Assembly (NCBI RefSeq): GCF_009789225.1
Contig: NZ_WSTA01000017.1
Span: 1 to 55,763, forward strand
Length of the DNA: 55,763 nucleotides
Origin: Agromyces seonyuensis
GTDB lineage: Bacteria > Actinomycetota > Actinomycetes > Actinomycetales > Microbacteriaceae
Direction: 5' to 3'
Positions within the stretch are counted from its first letter, which is position 1, and each line of letters starts with the position of its first letter. Both the position numbers and the translations under genes were made by a program. The notes beneath the pieces are model-generated. The model was not told the origin of the DNA. It did no database searches and worked only from the letters and a program-made list of their open reading frames with translations. Of this stretch, positions 12,749 through 41,686 are shown one piece after another.

Positions 12749-12849
12749 GGTCGAGCAGCGAAGCGTCTCGAGACCTGGTCGGGCCTCTGCGGTCTCGAGA
12801 CGCTCCTTCGTCGCTCCTCGACCAGCTCAGGTGCGCTCCTCGACCGACG
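12749..12849. repeat. GGTCGAGTAG-family repeats, head-to-head pair plus fragment
   Basis: A forward copy GGTCGAGCAG...TCTCGAGACC (12749-12775) faces an inverted copy GGTCTCGAGACG...CTCCTCGACC (12791-12823), and a partial copy CTCCTCGACCGACGG ends at 12849. They lie between the GAF regulator stop and the aldehyde dehydrogenase promoter. The facing copies could fold into a long hairpin acting as terminator for the regulator gene. Confidence 0.8.
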
Positions 12850-32522: not shown

Positions 32523-34793
32523 TCAGGCCTGGTGGAAGGTGCGGCTGATGACGTCGAGCTGCTGCTCGCGCGTGAGGCGAACGAAGTTGACCGCATAGCC
32601 GGAGACGCGGATGGTCAGCTGCGGGTACTCCTCGGGGTGCTCCATGGCGTCGAGGAGCGTCTCGCGGTTCAGCACGTTGATGTTCACGTGGTAGCCGCCC
32701 TCCCCGGTGAAGGCGTCGAGGAGGCCGACGAGGTTCGTCACCTGCTCGTCCGTCGTGCGACCGAGTCCCTGCGGGACGACCGTGTTGGTGAGCGAGATGC
32801 CGTCCTGCGCCTCGTCGAAGGGCAGTTTCGCGACCGAGAGCGCCGACGCGAGCATCCCGTGGGTGTCACGGCCGTTCATGGGGTTGGCGCCGGGGGCGAA
32901 GGGTACGCCCGCGCGGCGGCCGTCGGGGGTGTTGCCGGTGGCCTTGCCGTAGACGACGTTCGAGGTGATGGTCAGCACCGATTGCGTGTGGGTCGCGCCG
33001 CGGTAGCTCGGGTACGTCCGCACCCGCTCCATGAACTCGTGCACGATCGCCGCGGCGATCTCGTCGACGCGGTCGTCGTCATTGCCGAAGGTCGGGAAAT
33101 CGCCCTCGGTGACGTAGTCGACGATGAGGCCGTGCTCGTCGCGCACGGGGCGGACGGTCGCGTACTTGATCGCCGAGAGCGAGTCGGCCGCCACCGACAG
33201 GCCTGCGATGCCGCACGCGAGGGTGCGCAGCACGTCGCCGTCGTGGAGGGCCATCTCGAGGCGCTCGTACGCGTACTTGTCGTGCATGGCGTGGATGCAG
33301 TTGAGCGCCTCGACGTAGGTGCCGGCCAGCCAGTCGAGCAGCCCGAGGTAGGCGCTCCAGACGGTGTCGTAGTCGAGGACGTCGCCGGACATCGGCGCGG
33401 TCGCCGGGGCGACCTGCTTGCCGGTGATCTCGTCGCGGCCGCCGTTGATGGCGTAGAGGAGCGACTTCGCGATGTTCACGCGCGCGCCGAAGAACTGCAT
33501 CTGCTTGCCGACCTGCATGGGCGACACGCAGCACGCGATGGCCGCATCGTCGCCGCAGAGCGCGCGGATGTCGTCATCCGATTCGTACTGGATGGCCGAC
33601 GTGTCGATCGAGACCTGCGCGCAGAACCGCTTGAACCCGTCGGGGAGTCGGTCGCTCCAGAACACGGTGAGGTTCGGCTCCGGCGCGGGCCCGAGGTTGT
33701 AGAGCGTCTGGAGGTAGCGGAAGGAGTTCTTCGTCACGAGCGGTCGCTCGTCCTCCCCGATGCCGCCGATCGACTCGGTGACCCACGTCGGGTCGCCCGA
33801 GAAGAGCGCGTCGTACTCGGGGGTGCGGAGGAAGCGCACGATGCGCAGCTTGATGACGAGGTCGTCGATGAGCTCCTGCGCGAACTCCTCCGTGATTCGG
33901 CCGGCGGCGAGGTCGCGCTCGAGGTAGACGTCGAGGAAGGTCGCGTTGCGGCCGATCGACATCGCGGCACCGTTCTGCTCCTTCACCGCGCCGAGGTAGG
34001 CGAGGTAGAGCCACTGCACGGCCTCATGGGCGTCGCGAGCCGGGCGGCGGAGGTCCGCGCCGTACGACTCCCCCATCGCGATGAGCTCGCGCAGGGCCTT
34101 GATCTGCTCGGCGTTCTCCTCGCGGTCGCGGATGACGTCCTCGCTCGAGAACTTCGCGTCGAGCTCGGCGCGCTCGCCCTGCTTGGCGGCGATGAGCGCA
34201 TCCACGCCGTAGAGGGCGACGCGGCGGTAGTCGCCGATGATGCGGCCTCGGCCGTAGGCGTCGGGCAGGCCGGTGACGATGTGGGAACTGCGGGCGCGAC
34301 GGACGGCGGGCGGGTACACGTCGAAGACGCCGTCGTTGTGCGTCTTGCGGTACTTCGTGAAGATATCGCGGAGGTCGTCCGGCACCTCGTAGCCGTAGGT
34401 CGTGAGGGCGCCCTCGACCATGCGCCAGCCGCCGAAGGGCATGATGGCGCGCTTGAGCGGCGCATCCGTCTGGAGGCCGACGATGAGCTCGTTGCCCTCG
34501 TCGATGTAGCCGGGCGCGTGGGCGGTGATGCTCGAGGGGGTGCGAGTGTCGACGTCGTAGACGCCCTGCTCGCGCTCTTCGGGGAACAGCTCGGTCAGCT
34601 TCGACCAGATGCCGAGCGTGCGCTCGGTGGGGCCGGCGAGGAAGGCCGCGTCGCCCTCGTAGGGCGTGTAGTTGCGCTGGATGAAGTCGCGCACGTCGAT
34701 GCCGTGCTGCCACGCGCCCTCGGCGAATCCCTCCCAGGCGTCCAGCCCTTCGGTTCCGCTCGCCCGGCTGCGGCTCGGCGTGGTGATCGTCAT
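32523..34793 (-). CDS. pflB: formate C-acetyltransferase (pyruvate formate-lyase)
   Basis: 756 residues, the size of E. coli PflB. Splits pyruvate plus CoA into acetyl-CoA and formate without O2. The catalytic cysteine pair is in [10 protein letters not shown] and the glycyl-radical site in RVSGYAVNF near the C-terminus. GAAGGGAG lies 5 bases before ATG 34793; the longer open frame upstream is leader sequence. The first 20 residues are a Ser/Thr/Arg extension. The enzyme is oxygen-sensitive, and the promoter with two operator-like sites suggests tight control. The full activase is next to it, so the system looks functional. Confidence 0.97.
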
Positions 34794-34883
34794 GTCGACT
34801 CCCTTCGTCCGACGGTCGGTGACCGTCGGCGGCTCCTGCGGCGGGCCCGAACGGACGGCCGCGTCGCGCTCAGGTGCGTCATT

Positions 34884-34937
34884 ATTGTTGAACAATTAGG
34901 CACGTTCAGCCTAGTCCTCGTTTTGTTCGACAATCAA
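34884..34937 (-). promoter_or_regulatory. pflBA promoter with two GntR/FadR-type operators
   Basis: Minus-strand -35 TTGATT (34932-34937), an 18-base spacer and -10 TAGGCT (34908-34913) form the best full promoter in the window. ATTGTTGAACAAT, a perfect 6+1+6 palindrome (34884-34896), lies just after the expected start near 34901. TTGTTCGACAA (34923-34933) overlaps the -35. Both fit TNGTNNNACNA, the consensus of FadR-subfamily GntR regulators. The leader to the pflB ATG is about 108 bases. No regulator gene is adjacent. Confidence 0.7.
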
Positions 34938-35017
34938 GCGGAACGGACGATCGGCGAGTCGGCCGCAGCATCGGCCGATGCTCGTCGGATGCCCCGCAAC
35001 TGCGGTAGAGAGGGGGC

Positions 35018-35416
35018 ATGGTGTTCGCGATCAAACGGATCTACGACCCGGCCGACCCGGCCGACGGCACCCGGATCCTCGTCGACCGGCTGTGGCCGCG
35101 CGGCGTCTCCAGAGAGCGCGCCGAGCTCGACGAGTGGGCCAAGGACGTGTCGCCCTCCCCCGAGCTCCGCACCGAATGGCACCACGACCCCGACCGCTTC
35201 GACGAGTTCGCGGCGCGCTACCGCGCGGAGCTCGACGACAACCCGGCCGCAGCGGATCTGCTCGCGCGCAGCGCCTCCGATGCGCACGTGACCCTGCTCT
35301 TCGGCGCGCGCGACCGCCTCGTCAATCACGCCCACGTGCTGCTCGACTGGCTCCGCCACCACGGCGCGGAGGTCGAGGAGCCGGCGCCGCCGGTCGAGCC
35401 CCCGCCGGTCGAGTAG
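35018..35416 (+). CDS. DUF488 family protein
   Basis: 132 residues. KRIYDPADPADGTRILVDRLWPRG and the later WAKDVSPSPELRTEWHHDPDRFDEF are the DUF488 signatures; LLFGARDRLVNHAHVLLDWL closes the domain. The domain is small, of unknown function. The last residues PAPPVEPPPVE and the TAG stop are encoded by two truncated copies of the GGTCGAGTAG repeat, so the original end of the gene has been replaced or extended. Confidence 0.9.
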   Translation: MVFAIKRIYDPADPADGTRILVDRLWPRGVSRERAELDEWAKDVSPSPELRTEWHHDPDRFDEFAARYRAELDDNPAAADLLARSASDAHVTLLFGARDRLVNHAHVLLDWLRHHGAEVEEPAPPVEPPPVE

Positions 35417-35653
35417 GCGCGCACCGCCCCCGCTGGTCGAGTAGGCGCGAAGCGCCGTATCGAGACCCCGCGACCCGCCCTCCCGCTGGTCGAGCAGGCG
35501 CGAAGCGCCGTATCGAGACCCCGCGACCCCTTCCGCCGGTCGAGTAGGCGCGCAGCGCCGTATCGAGACCCCGCGACCCGCCTTCCCCCGCCGGGGTCTC
35601 GATACGCTTCGCTACTCGACCAGCGAGGTCTCGATACGCTTCGCTACTCGACC
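35407..35653. repeat. cluster of GGTCGAGTAG repeats: four forward, two inverted
   Basis: A partial forward copy (from 35407), then full forward copies GGTCGAGTAGG...TATCGAGACC at 35435-35467, 35488-35520 and 35538-35570, spaced by about 50-53 bases with similar spacers (CCGCGACCC...). Two inverted shorter copies GGTCTCGATACG...CTACTCGACC follow at 35595-35621 and 35627-35653. Forward copies carry an extra GC-rich insertion in the middle (GCGCGAAGCGCC) relative to the inverted ones. The facing copies could form a large cruciform or transcript hairpin. Confidence 0.9.
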
Positions 35654-35660
35654 AGCGAGG

Positions 35661-35762
35661 TCCGGCCTCGACGGCTTCGCCGGCGCGACGATCCCGGGGC
35701 TCCAGGCGGGCCTCCCGACGGAGGCGTTCGCCGAGCGGCTCGGCATCCGCGTCGGTGACTGA
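35661..35762 (+). pseudogene. C-terminal remnant of a gene, unidentified
   Basis: An open frame starting abruptly at the end of the repeat cluster encodes a protein-like 33-residue end, beginning SGLDGFAGATIPGLQ and ending AFAERLGIRVGD then TGA. It has the codon bias of real genes here and no start or ribosome site. I read it as the 3' end of a gene whose front was lost when the repeats were inserted or recombined. Family not recognised. Confidence 0.45.
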
Positions 35763-35778
35763 GCACGGACGCCCGGGC

Positions 35779-36309
35779 TCACCCGAGCTCGGCCTCGAGC
35801 CCGGCGAGCCGCGCCGCCGGGCTCCCGCCCAGCTCGACGACCCGCGCGCCGCCGGTCAGGTCGATGTCGTCGGCGAGGTCGAGCAGCGCGCCGTCCATCG
35901 CCGCGCGGAGCTCCGGATCCTCGTCCTCCGGCACGCGGATGCCCGCTTCCAACGGCAGCAGCACGAGCAGGTCGACGTTCGACATGGCCCGCGCGGCGAG
36001 ATCGACACCCTGCTCGAACAGCGCGCCCGCGCGCCCCGGCCGCCCGAGCGCGTCGAGCGCCGCGAGATAGGCGAGGAAGTCGAGCGGCCCGCGCTCGGCG
36101 ATCGCCCGCTCCGCCGGCGCGAGCGCGATGAGCCGCGCACTCGCGATGCGGAGCTGCGCGGCGAACACCCCGGCATCCGGCTCGTCGCCCGCGTCGTCGA
36201 CGAACTCGAACGGGTCGGCGAGCACCTCGAACCCCGGATGCCGGTCGGCGAACGCGTCGACGAGCGTCGACTTGCCGCTCGCATGGGTGCCGGAGACGAC
36301 GATGCGCAT
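35779..36309 (-). CDS. P-loop ATPase/kinase-like protein (AAA_28 type)
   Basis: 176 residues. Walker A VVSGTHASGKSTLV at the N-terminus; NVDLLVLLPLEAGIRVPEDEDPELR resembles the lid region of NadR-type or thymidylate-kinase-like small-molecule kinases. It probably phosphorylates a small metabolite; substrate unknown. TAGCAT lies 6 bases before ATG 36309, so the transcript is probably leaderless. It lies between the two repeat clusters and is convergent with the DUF488 gene. Confidence 0.85.
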   Translation of the reverse strand: MRIVVSGTHASGKSTLVDAFADRHPGFEVLADPFEFVDDAGDEPDAGVFAAQLRIASARLIALAPAERAIAERGPLDFLAYLAALDALGRPGRAGALFEQGVDLAARAMSNVDLLVLLPLEAGIRVPEDEDPELRAAMDGALLDLADDIDLTGGARVVELGGSPAARLAGLEAELG

Positions 36310-36315
36310 GCGGCG

Positions 36316-36321
36316 ATGCTA
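36316..36321 (-). promoter_or_regulatory. -10 box of P-loop gene, leaderless
   Basis: Minus-strand TAGCAT with 6 bases to ATG 36309. Confidence 0.5.
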
Positions 36322-36464
36322 TCGGCGGGCCTTGCGTCGCACGCTGCGGGTTCGTATTGCTTCTCCACTACCTCGACAAACGATACGAGGAGCCCAGCGC
36401 TCGAGCCCGGCGAGGAAGCCGGATACTGGCACTTGCACGCTGAGATCGAGGAGTCGGCTCCGGT

Positions 36465-36687
36465 GGTCGAGTAGGCGCGCCAGCGCCGTATCGGGGCCCC
36501 GTGACCACCCTTCCCGTGCGCCGACGACTTCCTCCAGCCAGTGAGCTTCTCGACCGCCGGGCACTCAACCGACGGGGTCTCGATACGCTGCGCTACTCGA
36601 CCGACGGGTCTCGATACGCTTCGCTACTCGACCGACGGGGGTCTCGATACGCTTCGCTACTCGACCGACGGGGGCGCTACTCGACCA
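36465..36687. repeat. second cluster of GGTCGAGTAG repeats: one forward, four inverted
   Basis: Forward copy 36465-36498, then inverted copies GGTCTCGATACG...CTACTCGACC at 36576-36602, 36607-36633 and 36640-36666, and a fragment CGCTACTCGACC at 36671-36687. The inverted copies are spaced 31-33 bases and nearly identical. The 367-base gap 36310-36676 holds only this cluster and the P-loop gene promoter; I found no gene there. The stop codon of the next gene is inside the last fragment. Confidence 0.9.
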
Positions 36688-37567
36688 GCGGGGACGGCAC
36701 CAGGAAGATCGGCGGCACGCCCGTGTGCGCGTAGACGATCACGAGGAAGACGACGAGGTCGAAGATCAGGTGCACCGTCAGCACGTAGGTGAGCGACTTC
36801 GTGAGGCGGAACGTCCAGCCCTGCACGAGGGCGAACGGGATCGTCAGCAGCGGGCCCCACGACTGGTAGCCGAGTTCCCAGAGGAACGAGACGAACACGA
36901 CGGCCTGCAGCAGGTTCGCGAGCCAGTCGGGGAACCAGCGCCGCAGCAGCGCGAAGACCGTGCAGATGAAGAACAGCTCGTCCCACGTGCCGACGGCGTT
37001 GACGCCGACGAACAGCCGTGCGATCTCAGACGGCTCGGTCACCGTCGGCCAGTTCGTGTAGACGCCGCTCGTGATGAAGTAGAACGGCAGGATCAGCCAG
37101 CCGGCGAACGTCACGCCCAGGAGGTACGCCCACTGCACACGGGTCCAGGGCCAGGTCGCCCGCCAGGGGAAGCGGATGCGGTCGAGGCCGCGATCGCGGA
37201 AGACGAAGCGCTGCAGCAGGAACGGCACCGCCACGGCGAGCGAGAGCACGATGCCCATGCGCGCGATGTTGCCCCAGGAGATGTCGGCCTCGACCGAGAT
37301 CGTCGAGATGATCGCCTGGCCGATCGCGATGAGCCCGAGATCGCGGGCGAGCCCGACCCGGGTGCCGGATGCCCGTGCGCGCCGGTCCACGAGGAGTGCC
37401 CAGGCGACGCCGAGCGCGAGCGCGATCCAGCCCGCCCAGACGACCTGCACCCCGAAGAGCAGCACGGCCGCCCCGACGACGAGCAGCGCGGGCCCGAGCC
37501 GCGCGGGCGCATCGCGGAGCGAGGGCGGCGGTGGCAGGAGCGTGGTGTCGGGCGTCGGCGCGGGCAC
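36677..37567 (-). CDS. CPBP-like intramembrane protein with altered catalytic residues
   Basis: 296 residues from GTG 37567, with about eight transmembrane helices. The arrangement matches the CPBP (Abi) intramembrane peptidase core: WDELFFICTVFALLRR where EExxxR is expected, then FVSFLWELG where FxxxH is expected, then LTVHLIFDL with HxxxD. The first glutamate is Asp and the second-motif His is missing, so peptidase activity is doubtful. The C-terminal LVE and stop are provided by the GGTCGAGTAG repeat. It diverges from the M4 protease gene. Confidence 0.78.
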   Translation of the reverse strand: MPAPTPDTTLLPPPPSLRDAPARLGPALLVVGAAVLLFGVQVVWAGWIALALGVAWALLVDRRARASGTRVGLARDLGLIAIGQAIISTISVEADISWGNIARMGIVLSLAVAVPFLLQRFVFRDRGLDRIRFPWRATWPWTRVQWAYLLGVTFAGWLILPFYFITSGVYTNWPTVTEPSEIARLFVGVNAVGTWDELFFICTVFALLRRWFPDWLANLLQAVVFVSFLWELGYQSWGPLLTIPFALVQGWTFRLTKSLTYVLTVHLIFDLVVFLVIVYAHTGVPPIFLVPSPLVE

Positions 37568-40463: not shown

Positions 40464-40500
40464 GGTCTCGATACGCCGTCTTCGCGCCGGCTCCTCGACC
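40464..40500. repeat. single diverged inverted copy of the GGTCGAGTAG family
   Basis: GGTCTCGATACGCC then TTCGCGCCGG and CTCCTCGACC; related to the other copies but with a longer middle. It lies 26 bases after the PrsW-family stop and away from the FKBP promoter. Confidence 0.7.
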
Positions 40501-40525: not shown

Positions 40526-41686
40526 TCAGGCCAGCAGACGCATCCGGGCGTCCTCGATGCGGTCGAGGAGCGCGCGCTCGTCGGCGCGCGCGGCGAGGTC
40601 GTCGCCGCCGTCGAGCATCCGCTGCCGGGTGAACGCGAGGTGGGTCGAGTCGGCGATGAGCGAGCGCATGACGTCGGCCCGCGGCGGGCGGAGCGCGGCG
40701 GCCCAGTCGATCGCGTTCCGTCGGCCCTCGGTCGTCGCGAGCATCCGCACCTCGCCCGGGGTGAACCAGCCGGCCTCGCCGTATTCGGCGAGCCGGTCGA
40801 AGGTCGTGCGCGCCTCCGTGGTGCGCAGGTGCAGCACGAACGCGATGACGGCGACGAAGAGCGGCACCTGCACGACCGCGTAGTACGTCGGGTAGTCGTC
40901 GACGAGCAGCAGCGCGGCGTTGTAGCCGCCGTGCAGCAGCATCGCCCCGAGGAGGCCGACGAGGTAGGCGCCCGTGACGACGGCTGGTCCGCGTCTCGCG
41001 GCCCAGCCGAGGGCGATGCCGACGCACGCCGTGAAGACGACGTGCGCGAACGGCGAGAACAGCCCGCGGATGACGAAGGTCGCCCCGAGGGCGTCCCCGC
41101 CTCGGCCGAGCGCGTCGGCGAAGTAGAGGATGTTCTCGCTGAACGCGAAGCCCGCCGCGACCGTCGCCGCGTAGACGACGCCGTCGAGCGGGCCGTCCCA
41201 GTTCGTGCGCCAGACGAGGAAGATGAGCAGCACGCCGAGCCCCTTGACGCCCTCCTCCACGATCGGCGCCTGGATCGCCGTGGAGAGGAAGCGGGCCGTC
41301 GCATCGTCGTCCGCGATGCGGCCGAACGCGGACTGCGCCCACGCGTCGAAGATGAGGGCCGCCGCGACCGAGACCGCCGCCCCCCACAGGAACGCGAACC
41401 AGCGCGCCCAGCGCGGCTCCGGCTCCCACCGGTCGACCCAGCGGATCGAGAACAGCACGATCGCGAGCGGCACGAGCGCCAGCAGGAACGAGACCGCGAC
41501 CCCGAAGAAGCCGATGCCCGAGATGAAGTACACGAGCAGCAGCACGGCGACGACGGCCGTCAGGGCGATGCCGACCCCCGCGACCCAGACGCCGCGCGCG
41601 CGCGAGGTACGACGACGTGCGGCCGAGCGCACGGCATCGATCCACGCCGACTGATCCGGCTCCGCCGCGTGCGCCCCCTGCCCCAC
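40526..41686 (-). CDS. PrsW family intramembrane metalloprotease
   Basis: 386 residues from GTG 41686. About nine transmembrane helices; the catalytic motif is APIVEEGVKGL (EExxK), with FSENILYF, SPFAHVVFTA and LLHGGYNAAL holding the other conserved residues of PrsW. In Bacillus PrsW starts anti-sigma-factor cleavage. The C-terminal ~110 residues are soluble (GWFTPGEVRMLATTEGRRNAI). TAGGCT ends 7 bases before the GTG, inside the stop region of the upstream gene; probably leaderless. Confidence 0.93.
   Translation of the reverse strand: MGQGAHAAEPDQSAWIDAVRSAARRRTSRARGVWVAGVGIALTAVVAVLLLVYFISGIGFFGVAVSFLLALVPLAIVLFSIRWVDRWEPEPRWARWFAFLWGAAVSVAAALIFDAWAQSAFGRIADDDATARFLSTAIQAPIVEEGVKGLGVLLIFLVWRTNWDGPLDGVVYAATVAAGFAFSENILYFADALGRGGDALGATFVIRGLFSPFAHVVFTACVGIALGWAARRGPAVVTGAYLVGLLGAMLLHGGYNAALLLVDDYPTYYAVVQVPLFVAVIAFVLHLRTTEARTTFDRLAEYGEAGWFTPGEVRMLATTEGRRNAIDWAAALRPPRADVMRSLIADSTHLAFTRQRMLDGGDDLAARADERALLDRIEDARMRLLA

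What the first reader, a model, noticed from the sequence alone, without database searches (positions are those of the whole stretch)
35407..35653. Array of facing GGTCGAGTAG...TATCGAGACC repeats beside DUF488
Three full and one partial forward copies at ~50-base spacing are followed by two inverted copies. Forward copies carry a longer middle than inverted ones. The head-to-head layout resembles REP/REPIN doublets, elements mobilised in other phyla by REP-associated transposases. The family seems familiar from Microbacteriaceae intergenic DNA, but I know of no named element or mechanism.
Basis: partly seen in the sequence, partly recalled or inferred. Interest (0 to 1): 0.72.

Follow-up and report, generated by a model that had tools for sequence, protein, structure and literature searches.

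The report
REP-like repeats without their usual transposase
The array is one small patch of a very abundant family of short hairpin repeats that sit just after genes in soil bacteria of the genus Agromyces and its relatives; they look like the REP repeats of E. coli and Pseudomonas, but none of the Agromyces genomes searched carries the enzyme thought to move those, so what spreads them is open.

Summary
The window's genome (taken to be an Agromyces) has 280 exact copies of GGTCGAGTAG-N0-20-TATCGAGACC and none of the reversed control. The unit is a stem-loop: an outer stem that covaries in relatives (GGTC/GACC, GATC/GATC, GGTT/AACC), the tetranucleotide GTAG, then a variable inner hairpin. Copies often pair head to head; in the 66 distinct doublets tested the two halves never carry like hairpins (about 10.6 expected). 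In the sample they lie between convergent genes or downstream of genes, with no cluster in a divergent gap, and supply the stop of 20 of 53 TAG-ending genes. Copy number in 60 Agromyces runs from 0 to 280; orthologous sites tested are mostly empty. These are hallmarks of GTAG-type REPs, reported from Proteobacteria, Cyanobacteria, Chloroflexi and the PVC group. GTAG is enclosed by the outer stem, not terminal. I read it as a REP-like mobile family, new to Actinomycetota as far as I found, with its mobiliser lost or unknown.

The parts
35407..35428 (+). partial forward copy: intact 5' arm GGTCGAGTAG, rest degenerate; its TAG (35414-35416) is the stop codon of the DUF488 gene
35435..35467 (+). 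full copy, long (inner hairpin GGCGC-GAA-GCGCC)
35488..35520 (+). full copy, long, one arm substitution (GGTCGAGCAG)
35538..35570 (+). full copy, long; forward partner of the head-to-head doublet
35595..35621 (-). full copy, short (inner hairpin GC-GAA-GC); inverted partner, 24 bases from the previous copy
35627..35653 (-). full copy, short; looks like a tandem duplicate of the inverted partner
36465..36498 (+). degenerate forward copy (TATCGGGGCC end)
36576..36602 (-). short inverted copy, first of three in tandem
36607..36633 (-). short inverted copy
36640..36666 (-). short inverted copy
36677..36686 (-). arm only (CTACTCGACC on +), the 3' end and stop codon of the Rce1-like gene
12749..12823 (.). 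variant head-to-head doublet: short (+) 12749-12775 and long (-) 12791-12823, right arms TCTCGAGACC
40464..40500 (-). lone variant copy 25 bases downstream of the gene at 40526-41686 (-)
35018..35416 (+). neighbouring DUF488 gene (Pfam DUF488-N3i), stop codon inside the first repeat arm; host gene, not part of the element
36677..37567 (-). neighbouring Rce1-like (PF02517) gene, stop codon inside a repeat arm; host gene, used for the orthologous-site test

Best explanation
A GTAG-tagged REP-like repeat family. Shown: each unit is a constrained stem-loop (outer stem, enclosed GTAG, variable inner hairpin), often paired head to head with a partner carrying a different hairpin, present in hundreds of copies, in the sample mostly downstream of genes, patchy between congeneric species and absent at most orthologous sites tested. 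Inferred: the unit spreads as a folded single DNA strand, cut and pasted in trans by an enzyme that reads GTAG plus hairpin, as TnpA-REP does in vitro in E. coli; insertions survive mainly at gene 3' ends because the outward GGTCGAGTAG arms provide a stop codon and no promoter is broken. Since none of the 60 genomes examined in the genus has a Y1 transposase by PF01797, that enzyme is either lost or of another kind. Probability of 'REP-like mobile family without a resident Y1 enzyme': about 0.65; the cut-and-paste step itself is not shown.
For: 280 exact copies against 0 for the reversed control; 0 to 280 copies among 60 congeners, 17 of 60 with none (tallied). Outer-stem covariation with the outer bases left free: pair -1 79/79 paired (largest of 1000 shuffles 76) and pair -3 77/79 (largest 71) in other Actinomycetota; pair -1 30/34 (largest 29) in Chloroflexota. 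Inner stems 3.58, 4.11 and 4.40 bp against 0.65, 0.73 and 0.90 shuffled; G.T pairs 1/86, 7/452, 6/185, rare, which I take to favour DNA over RNA. GTAG after the outer arm in 28/66, 125/175 and 45/54. Heterotypic doublets: 0 same-type of 20, 18, 17, 2 and 9 distinct doublets; expected 3.8, 1.6, 4.6, 0.0, 0.6. Context: of 35 intergenic clusters with both neighbours called, 20 convergent, 15 tandem, 0 divergent, against 42, 103 and 68 gaps (Fisher P 4.7e-7 for divergent). 20 of 53 TAG-ending genes end in the element. Orthologous sites occupied in 1 of 15, 2 of 18 and 1 of 4, the own or query genome included each time. Published GTAG REPs share the tag, head-to-head dimers (heterodimers in some families), the convergent/unidirectional position and TAG stops (PMC3733652 sections 5, 14, 15).
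Against: No transposition event was observed; long matches to the nearest species are only about 70-88% identical, so no clean empty site with target duplication could be read. PF01797 is missing from every Agromyces tested. GTAG is not terminal as in the published definition. Linkers inside doublets differ between most loci (18-mers: mean identity 0.55, shuffled 0.37, largest 0.89) and their two ends do not covary (P 0.94), so recent copying of whole doublets is not shown. Outer pairs -2 and -4 are no better than shuffled in any set, and in the own genome the whole outer stem is nearly invariant and uninformative; shuffling does not remove relatedness, neither nor. Only two of five doublet sets are individually unusual (P 0.016, 0.0025; the others 0.16, 1.0, 0.50), and heterotypy could also arise because perfect long palindromes are deleted. 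With DNA energies only the long form of three test hairpins folds with the outer stem; the short and 13-base forms fold otherwise.
Confidence: 0.65

Rival explanations
1. Relic of a lost RAYT: a standard TnpA-REP once moved these repeats in an ancestor or arrived transiently, and has been deleted; today's copies only decay, duplicate locally and are inherited.
For: 19 of 19 Chloroflexota carriers examined hold PF01797 genes (how many Chloroflexota without the repeat hold them was not tested). REPtrons are reported missing in some species through deletion (PMC3733652 section 16). Several clusters look like local tandem duplications.
Against: 0 of 60 Agromyces and 0 of 25 named actinobacterial carriers keep one, and a survey reports only IS200-type subclass 1.1 in Actinobacteridae (PMC6006769 section 10). 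Hairpin and arm types differ between Agromyces, Rathayibacter, Microterricola and Nocardioides loci, which suggests amplification after they split. Of 25 Chloroflexota Y1 loci looked at (of 75 matches) 5 have a copy within about 1.5 kb.
Confidence: 0.2
2. Not mobile: bidirectional transcription-end or mRNA-stabilising hairpins kept by selection at gene 3' ends.
For: Convergent and 3' placement, no divergent gaps, stop codon inside the element, inner hairpins; one gene end is occupied both in Leifsonia and here.
Against: 17 of 60 congeners have no exact copy (tallied); the same genes lack them in 14 of 15 and 16 of 18 loci; no T-tract terminator was called at the window's repeats; G.T pairs are rare; no Rfam match at 34700-37000.
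Confidence: 0.1
3. MITE of an ordinary (DDE or other) insertion sequence whose ends resemble the repeat.
For: Head-to-head pairs resemble short inverted-repeat elements.
Against: Of 27 genes flanked on both sides by copies none looked like a transposase (my reading of the sequences; Pfam run on 4 of the 27). DUF222/HNH-type genes, flanked in two Rathayibacter loci, show no copy-number correlation in Agromyces (Spearman -0.06, P 0.63, n 60). A 51-base query found no match in plasmids or phages. The rest of the genome was not searched for such an insertion sequence.
Confidence: 0.05
4. Composition artefact or chance.
For: None found.
Against: 280 against 0 reversed control; 30 against 4.3 in the window.
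Confidence: 0

Closest known systems
GTAG-tagged REPs of Proteobacteria, Cyanobacteria, Chloroflexi and PVC bacteria (Di Nocera et al. 2013, PMC3733652)
   Same: GTAG beside a variable hairpin, head-to-head dimers, heterodimers in some families, gene 3' ends, TAG used as stop codon, clusters of repeats
   Different: GTAG is enclosed by a conserved outer stem (GGTC-GA.../...GA-GACC) that covaries in relatives, instead of being the free end; carriers here are Actinomycetota, not named in that paper's main text (0 hits for 'actino'; its figures and supplements were not seen), plus Anaerolineae; no Y1 gene in the actinobacterial carriers examined
REPIN/RAYT systems of Pseudomonas and BIME/TnpA-REP of E. 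coli
   Same: head-to-head pairs, long/short heterodimers as reported for enterobacterial GTAG-3 (PMC3733652 section 14), hundreds of copies, hairpin signature
   Different: no resident RAYT, no REPtron found; linker sequences vary
CGTC-tagged REPs (PMC3733652)
   Same: dispersed tagged hairpins reported to lack a dedicated transposase
   Different: tag is GTAG, not CGTC
T. roseum GTAG-23 and A. variabilis GTAG-15 repeats inserted in palindromes (PMC3733652 section 7)
   Same: GTAG repeat sitting inside an outer palindrome; that T. roseum is a Chloroflexi bacterium is recalled
   Different: published outer palindromes (CCGSSCC...GGSSCGG and an AT-rich one) are not GGTCGA...TCGAGACC; the figure with the repeat consensus could not be read here

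Membership tests
GTAG-tagged REP superfamily | GTAG tetranucleotide directly 5' of the hairpin | tested here: met
   with only outer arms required: 28/66 own, 125/175 other Actinomycetota, 45/54 Chloroflexota distinct sequences; the remainder includes decayed or chance matches
GTAG-tagged REP superfamily | GTAG forms the unpaired terminus of the repeat | tested here: not met
   an outer 4-bp stem beyond GTAG is conserved, and two of its pairs covary in relatives
GTAG-tagged REP superfamily | stem-loop kept through compensatory change | tested here: met
   inner stems 3.58-4.40 bp against 0.65-0.90 shuffled; outer pairs -1 and -3
GTAG-tagged REP superfamily | high copy number, intergenic, convergent/unidirectional, at gene 3' ends | tested here: met
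   about a tenth of the genome, gene calls by my own script; 6 of 46 clusters were called inside genes
REPIN (RAYT-mobilised REP doublet) | two REPs head to head as the common unit | tested here: met
   38 of 71 close pairs are +- in the own sample, spacing peaks 8-9 and 18
REPIN (RAYT-mobilised REP doublet) | a RAYT / Y1 tyrosine transposase gene in the genome | tested here: not met
   PF01797 0 of 60 Agromyces, 0 of 25 named actinobacterial carriers, 7 of them Agromyces, 0 of the 3 other carriers of the family seen (G067, G068, G071); a custom Y1 profile finds nothing in the actinobacterial loci held. Met in 19 of 19 Chloroflexota carriers
REPIN (RAYT-mobilised REP doublet) | RAYT gene flanked by the same repeats (REPtron) | tested here: not met
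   Agromyces: no Y1 gene to flank. Chloroflexota, inconclusive: of 25 Y1 loci looked at (75 matches in all) 5 have a copy within about 1.5 kb, none on both sides
REPIN (RAYT-mobilised REP doublet) | new insertions seen between close strains | not testable with these tools
   one genome per species; long matches to nearest species about 70-88% identical
Rho-independent terminator | stem followed by a T run | tested here: not met
   2 calls in 35300-36800, both within 36331-36350, outside the repeats

The most novel reading that the evidence does not exclude
GTAG-hairpin repeats in Actinomycetota are moved by an enzyme family other than the Y1/RAYT transposases, one that reads a hairpin with an enclosed GTAG and has kept the same 20 bases of arm across Actinomycetota and Chloroflexota.
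Probability: 0.3. Interest if true: 0.82.

Novelty: new variant of a known kind. Interest (0 to 1): 0.6.

Why it matters
REPs are thought to be propagated by RAYTs, and a published survey reports that Actinobacteridae carry only IS200-type members of that enzyme superfamily (PMC6006769 section 10). A family with the REP anatomy and hundreds of copies in a genome where no Y1 enzyme was found separates the repeat from its supposed mobiliser, so the dependence can be tested. Sixty Agromyces genomes with 0 to 280 copies make a ready set for finding the genes that go with amplification.

Tried and rejected
RAYT co-occurrence: rejected for the Actinomycetota examined, also with a profile I built from 26 Y1 proteins (one hit, a Chloroflexota locus, L106). 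DUF222/HNH as mobiliser: suggested by two Rathayibacter loci, no correlation (counts typed over). Single long hairpin over the doublet: linker ends do not covary (P 0.94, 0.40, 0.51 in three sets). Association of hairpin type with downstream flank: none (P 1.0). Empty-site reading: alignments with Agromyces cavernae, Rathayibacter and Leifsonia loci were too diverged for boundaries; the Leifsonia locus carries a copy at the same gene end, so at least one position is shared or reused. Dropped rows: 5 of 20 loci (first gene), 2 of 20 (second) and 16 of 20 (third) gave no hit. My first gene caller chose antisense frames and was replaced; its context counts are dropped. Plasmid and phage collections: no match to a 51-base query at E 0.01; Rfam: none. 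In the listings of the paper searches for the motif and for REPs in these taxa I saw no paper on this repeat; the library is open-access only. Searches count distinct sequences. One search's 130 relaxed matches include some that look like chance inside genes. Part of the listing was cut.

Full report
Observation. The array is at the stated place: a partial forward arm (35407-35416), three full 33-nt forward copies (35435, 35488, 35538) and two 27-nt inverted copies (35595, 35627). In the window, GGTCGAGTAG with up to one mismatch occurs 30 times against a shuffled mean of 4.33. The whole genome (3.92 Mb, 169 contigs) has 280 exact copies of GGTCGAGTAGN{0,20}TATCGAGACC and 0 of the reversed control.

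Host. Contig G050:C1, of a genome in the same genus, has 417,570 bases, the length of Agromyces tardus SJ-23 Scaffold1. I therefore take the genus to be Agromyces; this rests on one length match.

Distribution. Among 120 genomes (own included) 46 carry the exact motif, all in the same family; within the genus 43 of 60 do, with 0 to 280 copies. In an even draw of 396 genomes of the phylum, a slightly wider motif is found in 3, all of the genus. In the class of one Chloroflexota carrier 23 of 199 genomes have the wider motif, up to 210 copies. A 51-base query found nothing in plasmid or phage collections, but 21 viral-contig stretches hold the motif (not followed up).

Anatomy. The unit is an outer stem, GTAG, an inner hairpin, TA, outer stem. 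Leaving the outer bases free, changes are compensated at two pairs: C-G to T-A at the innermost and G-C to A-T at the third, beyond each of 1000 shuffles in other Actinomycetota, and at the innermost pair in Chloroflexota; the second and fourth pairs hardly vary and do not exceed shuffles. The own genome is nearly invariant there and says nothing. Inner stems are far above shuffled, though 10 of 24 distinct own ones have only 2 contiguous pairs; loops are GAA, GCA or GGA in 13 of 24 own, 39 of 110 other actinobacterial and 9 of 42 Chloroflexota inner sequences; G.T pairs are rare. That GNA loops and tandem G.A mismatches are very stable in DNA is recalled, not tested; with DNA energies ViennaRNA gives the expected fold for the long form but not for the short or the 13-base form.

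Doublets. In the own sample, of 71 pairs of neighbours closer than 60 bases, 38 are head to head, with spacing peaks at 8-9 and 18 bases. With a stricter pattern, no distinct doublet has two like hairpins: 0 of 20 (own), 18 (other Agromyces), 17 (Rathayibacter), 2 (Chloroflexota) and 9 (other Actinomycetota); the sets separately reach P 0.016, 0.16, 0.0025, 1.0 and 0.50. The long-forward, short-inverted look of the array is one case. Heterodimers are known in GTAG REPs, and protection from palindrome clearance has been suggested as a reason (PMC3733652 section 14).

Position. In 402,619 sampled bases, chosen from the first listed copies plus the window, 46 clusters were found: 20 convergent, 15 tandem, 0 divergent, 6 called inside genes (some look like chance matches) and 5 at sample edges; background gaps of 50 bases or more number 42, 103 and 68 (Fisher P 4.7e-7 against divergent). 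Genes were called by a script of mine. The element's TAG is the stop codon of 20 of 343 genes, or 20 of the 53 that end in TAG, among them the DUF488 and the Rce1-like genes of the window.

Turnover. Downstream of the Rce1-like gene only the own genome of 15 tested has copies; at an A. tardus site 2 of 18, A. tardus included; at a third site 1 of 4. The relatives tested end the Rce1-like gene at stop codons outside any repeat.

Mobiliser. PF01797 is absent from 60 of 60 Agromyces and 25 of 25 named actinobacterial carriers, 7 of them Agromyces, present in 19 of 19 Chloroflexota carriers (genomes of 45 of the 118 stretches were asked for, 44 held) and in 121 of 396 genomes of the phylum. Whether Chloroflexota without the repeat have it as often was not tested. 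Of 25 Chloroflexota Y1 loci looked at, of 75 matches, 5 have a copy within about 1.5 kb. A survey reports that Actinobacteridae carry only IS200-type members (PMC6006769 section 10). Twenty-seven genes flanked on both sides by copies included none that looked like a transposase to me; two were DUF222/HNH-type genes (one confirmed by Pfam), a family whose number does not follow the repeats.

Reading. It works like a REP. It is not filed as a REPIN/RAYT system because the enzyme was sought and not found, nor as a textbook GTAG REP because GTAG is enclosed. The choice between an unknown mobiliser and a lost one is open; I lean only slightly to ongoing spread, because hairpin and arm types differ between genera and sites are patchy.

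Papers. Read: PMC3733652 abstract, sections 5, 7, 14, 15, 16 and passages; PMC6006769 section 10 and passages; PMC8266576 abstract and introduction; PMC8049555 and PMC5217419 passages only. Statements on E. coli TnpA-REP cutting GTAG-tagged single strands come from PMC8266576.

Noticed in passing
L091, L149, L126, L114 (Chloroflexota): Copies sit in the loop of another hairpin-like sequence (TCATTGCGAG...CGAAGCAATC), as if one hairpin family inserts in the tip of another; that this outer sequence is a widespread repeat is recalled.
   Followed up: no
L163:5973-7037 and L113:6540-7478 (Agromyces): A gene resembling a sulfate adenylyltransferase subunit (my reading) has an N-terminus that seems to read through repeat copies in frame (GLDTGAGASYSTTE, repeated in L163).
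   Followed up: no
L092:1934-3202 and L166:2543-3847 (Rathayibacter): DUF222/HNH-type genes with repeats on both sides; no copy-number link in Agromyces.
   Followed up: partly
L078:1824-1856 and L039:13424-13498: A Leifsonia and the own genome both have copies downstream of the same gene, a shared or reused site.
   Followed up: partly
L252-L272 (viral contigs): 21 stretches of the viral-contig collection hold the motif; provirus or host carry-over not examined. No Y1 profile hit in them.
   Followed up: partly
L217:5117-5837 (G017): Seven head-to-head doublets in tandem, period about 100-108 bases, between convergent genes.
   Followed up: no
window 35779-36309 (-): A small AAA-type ATPase gene (AAA_28, just over the Pfam cut-off) lies between the two repeat clusters.
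   Followed up: no
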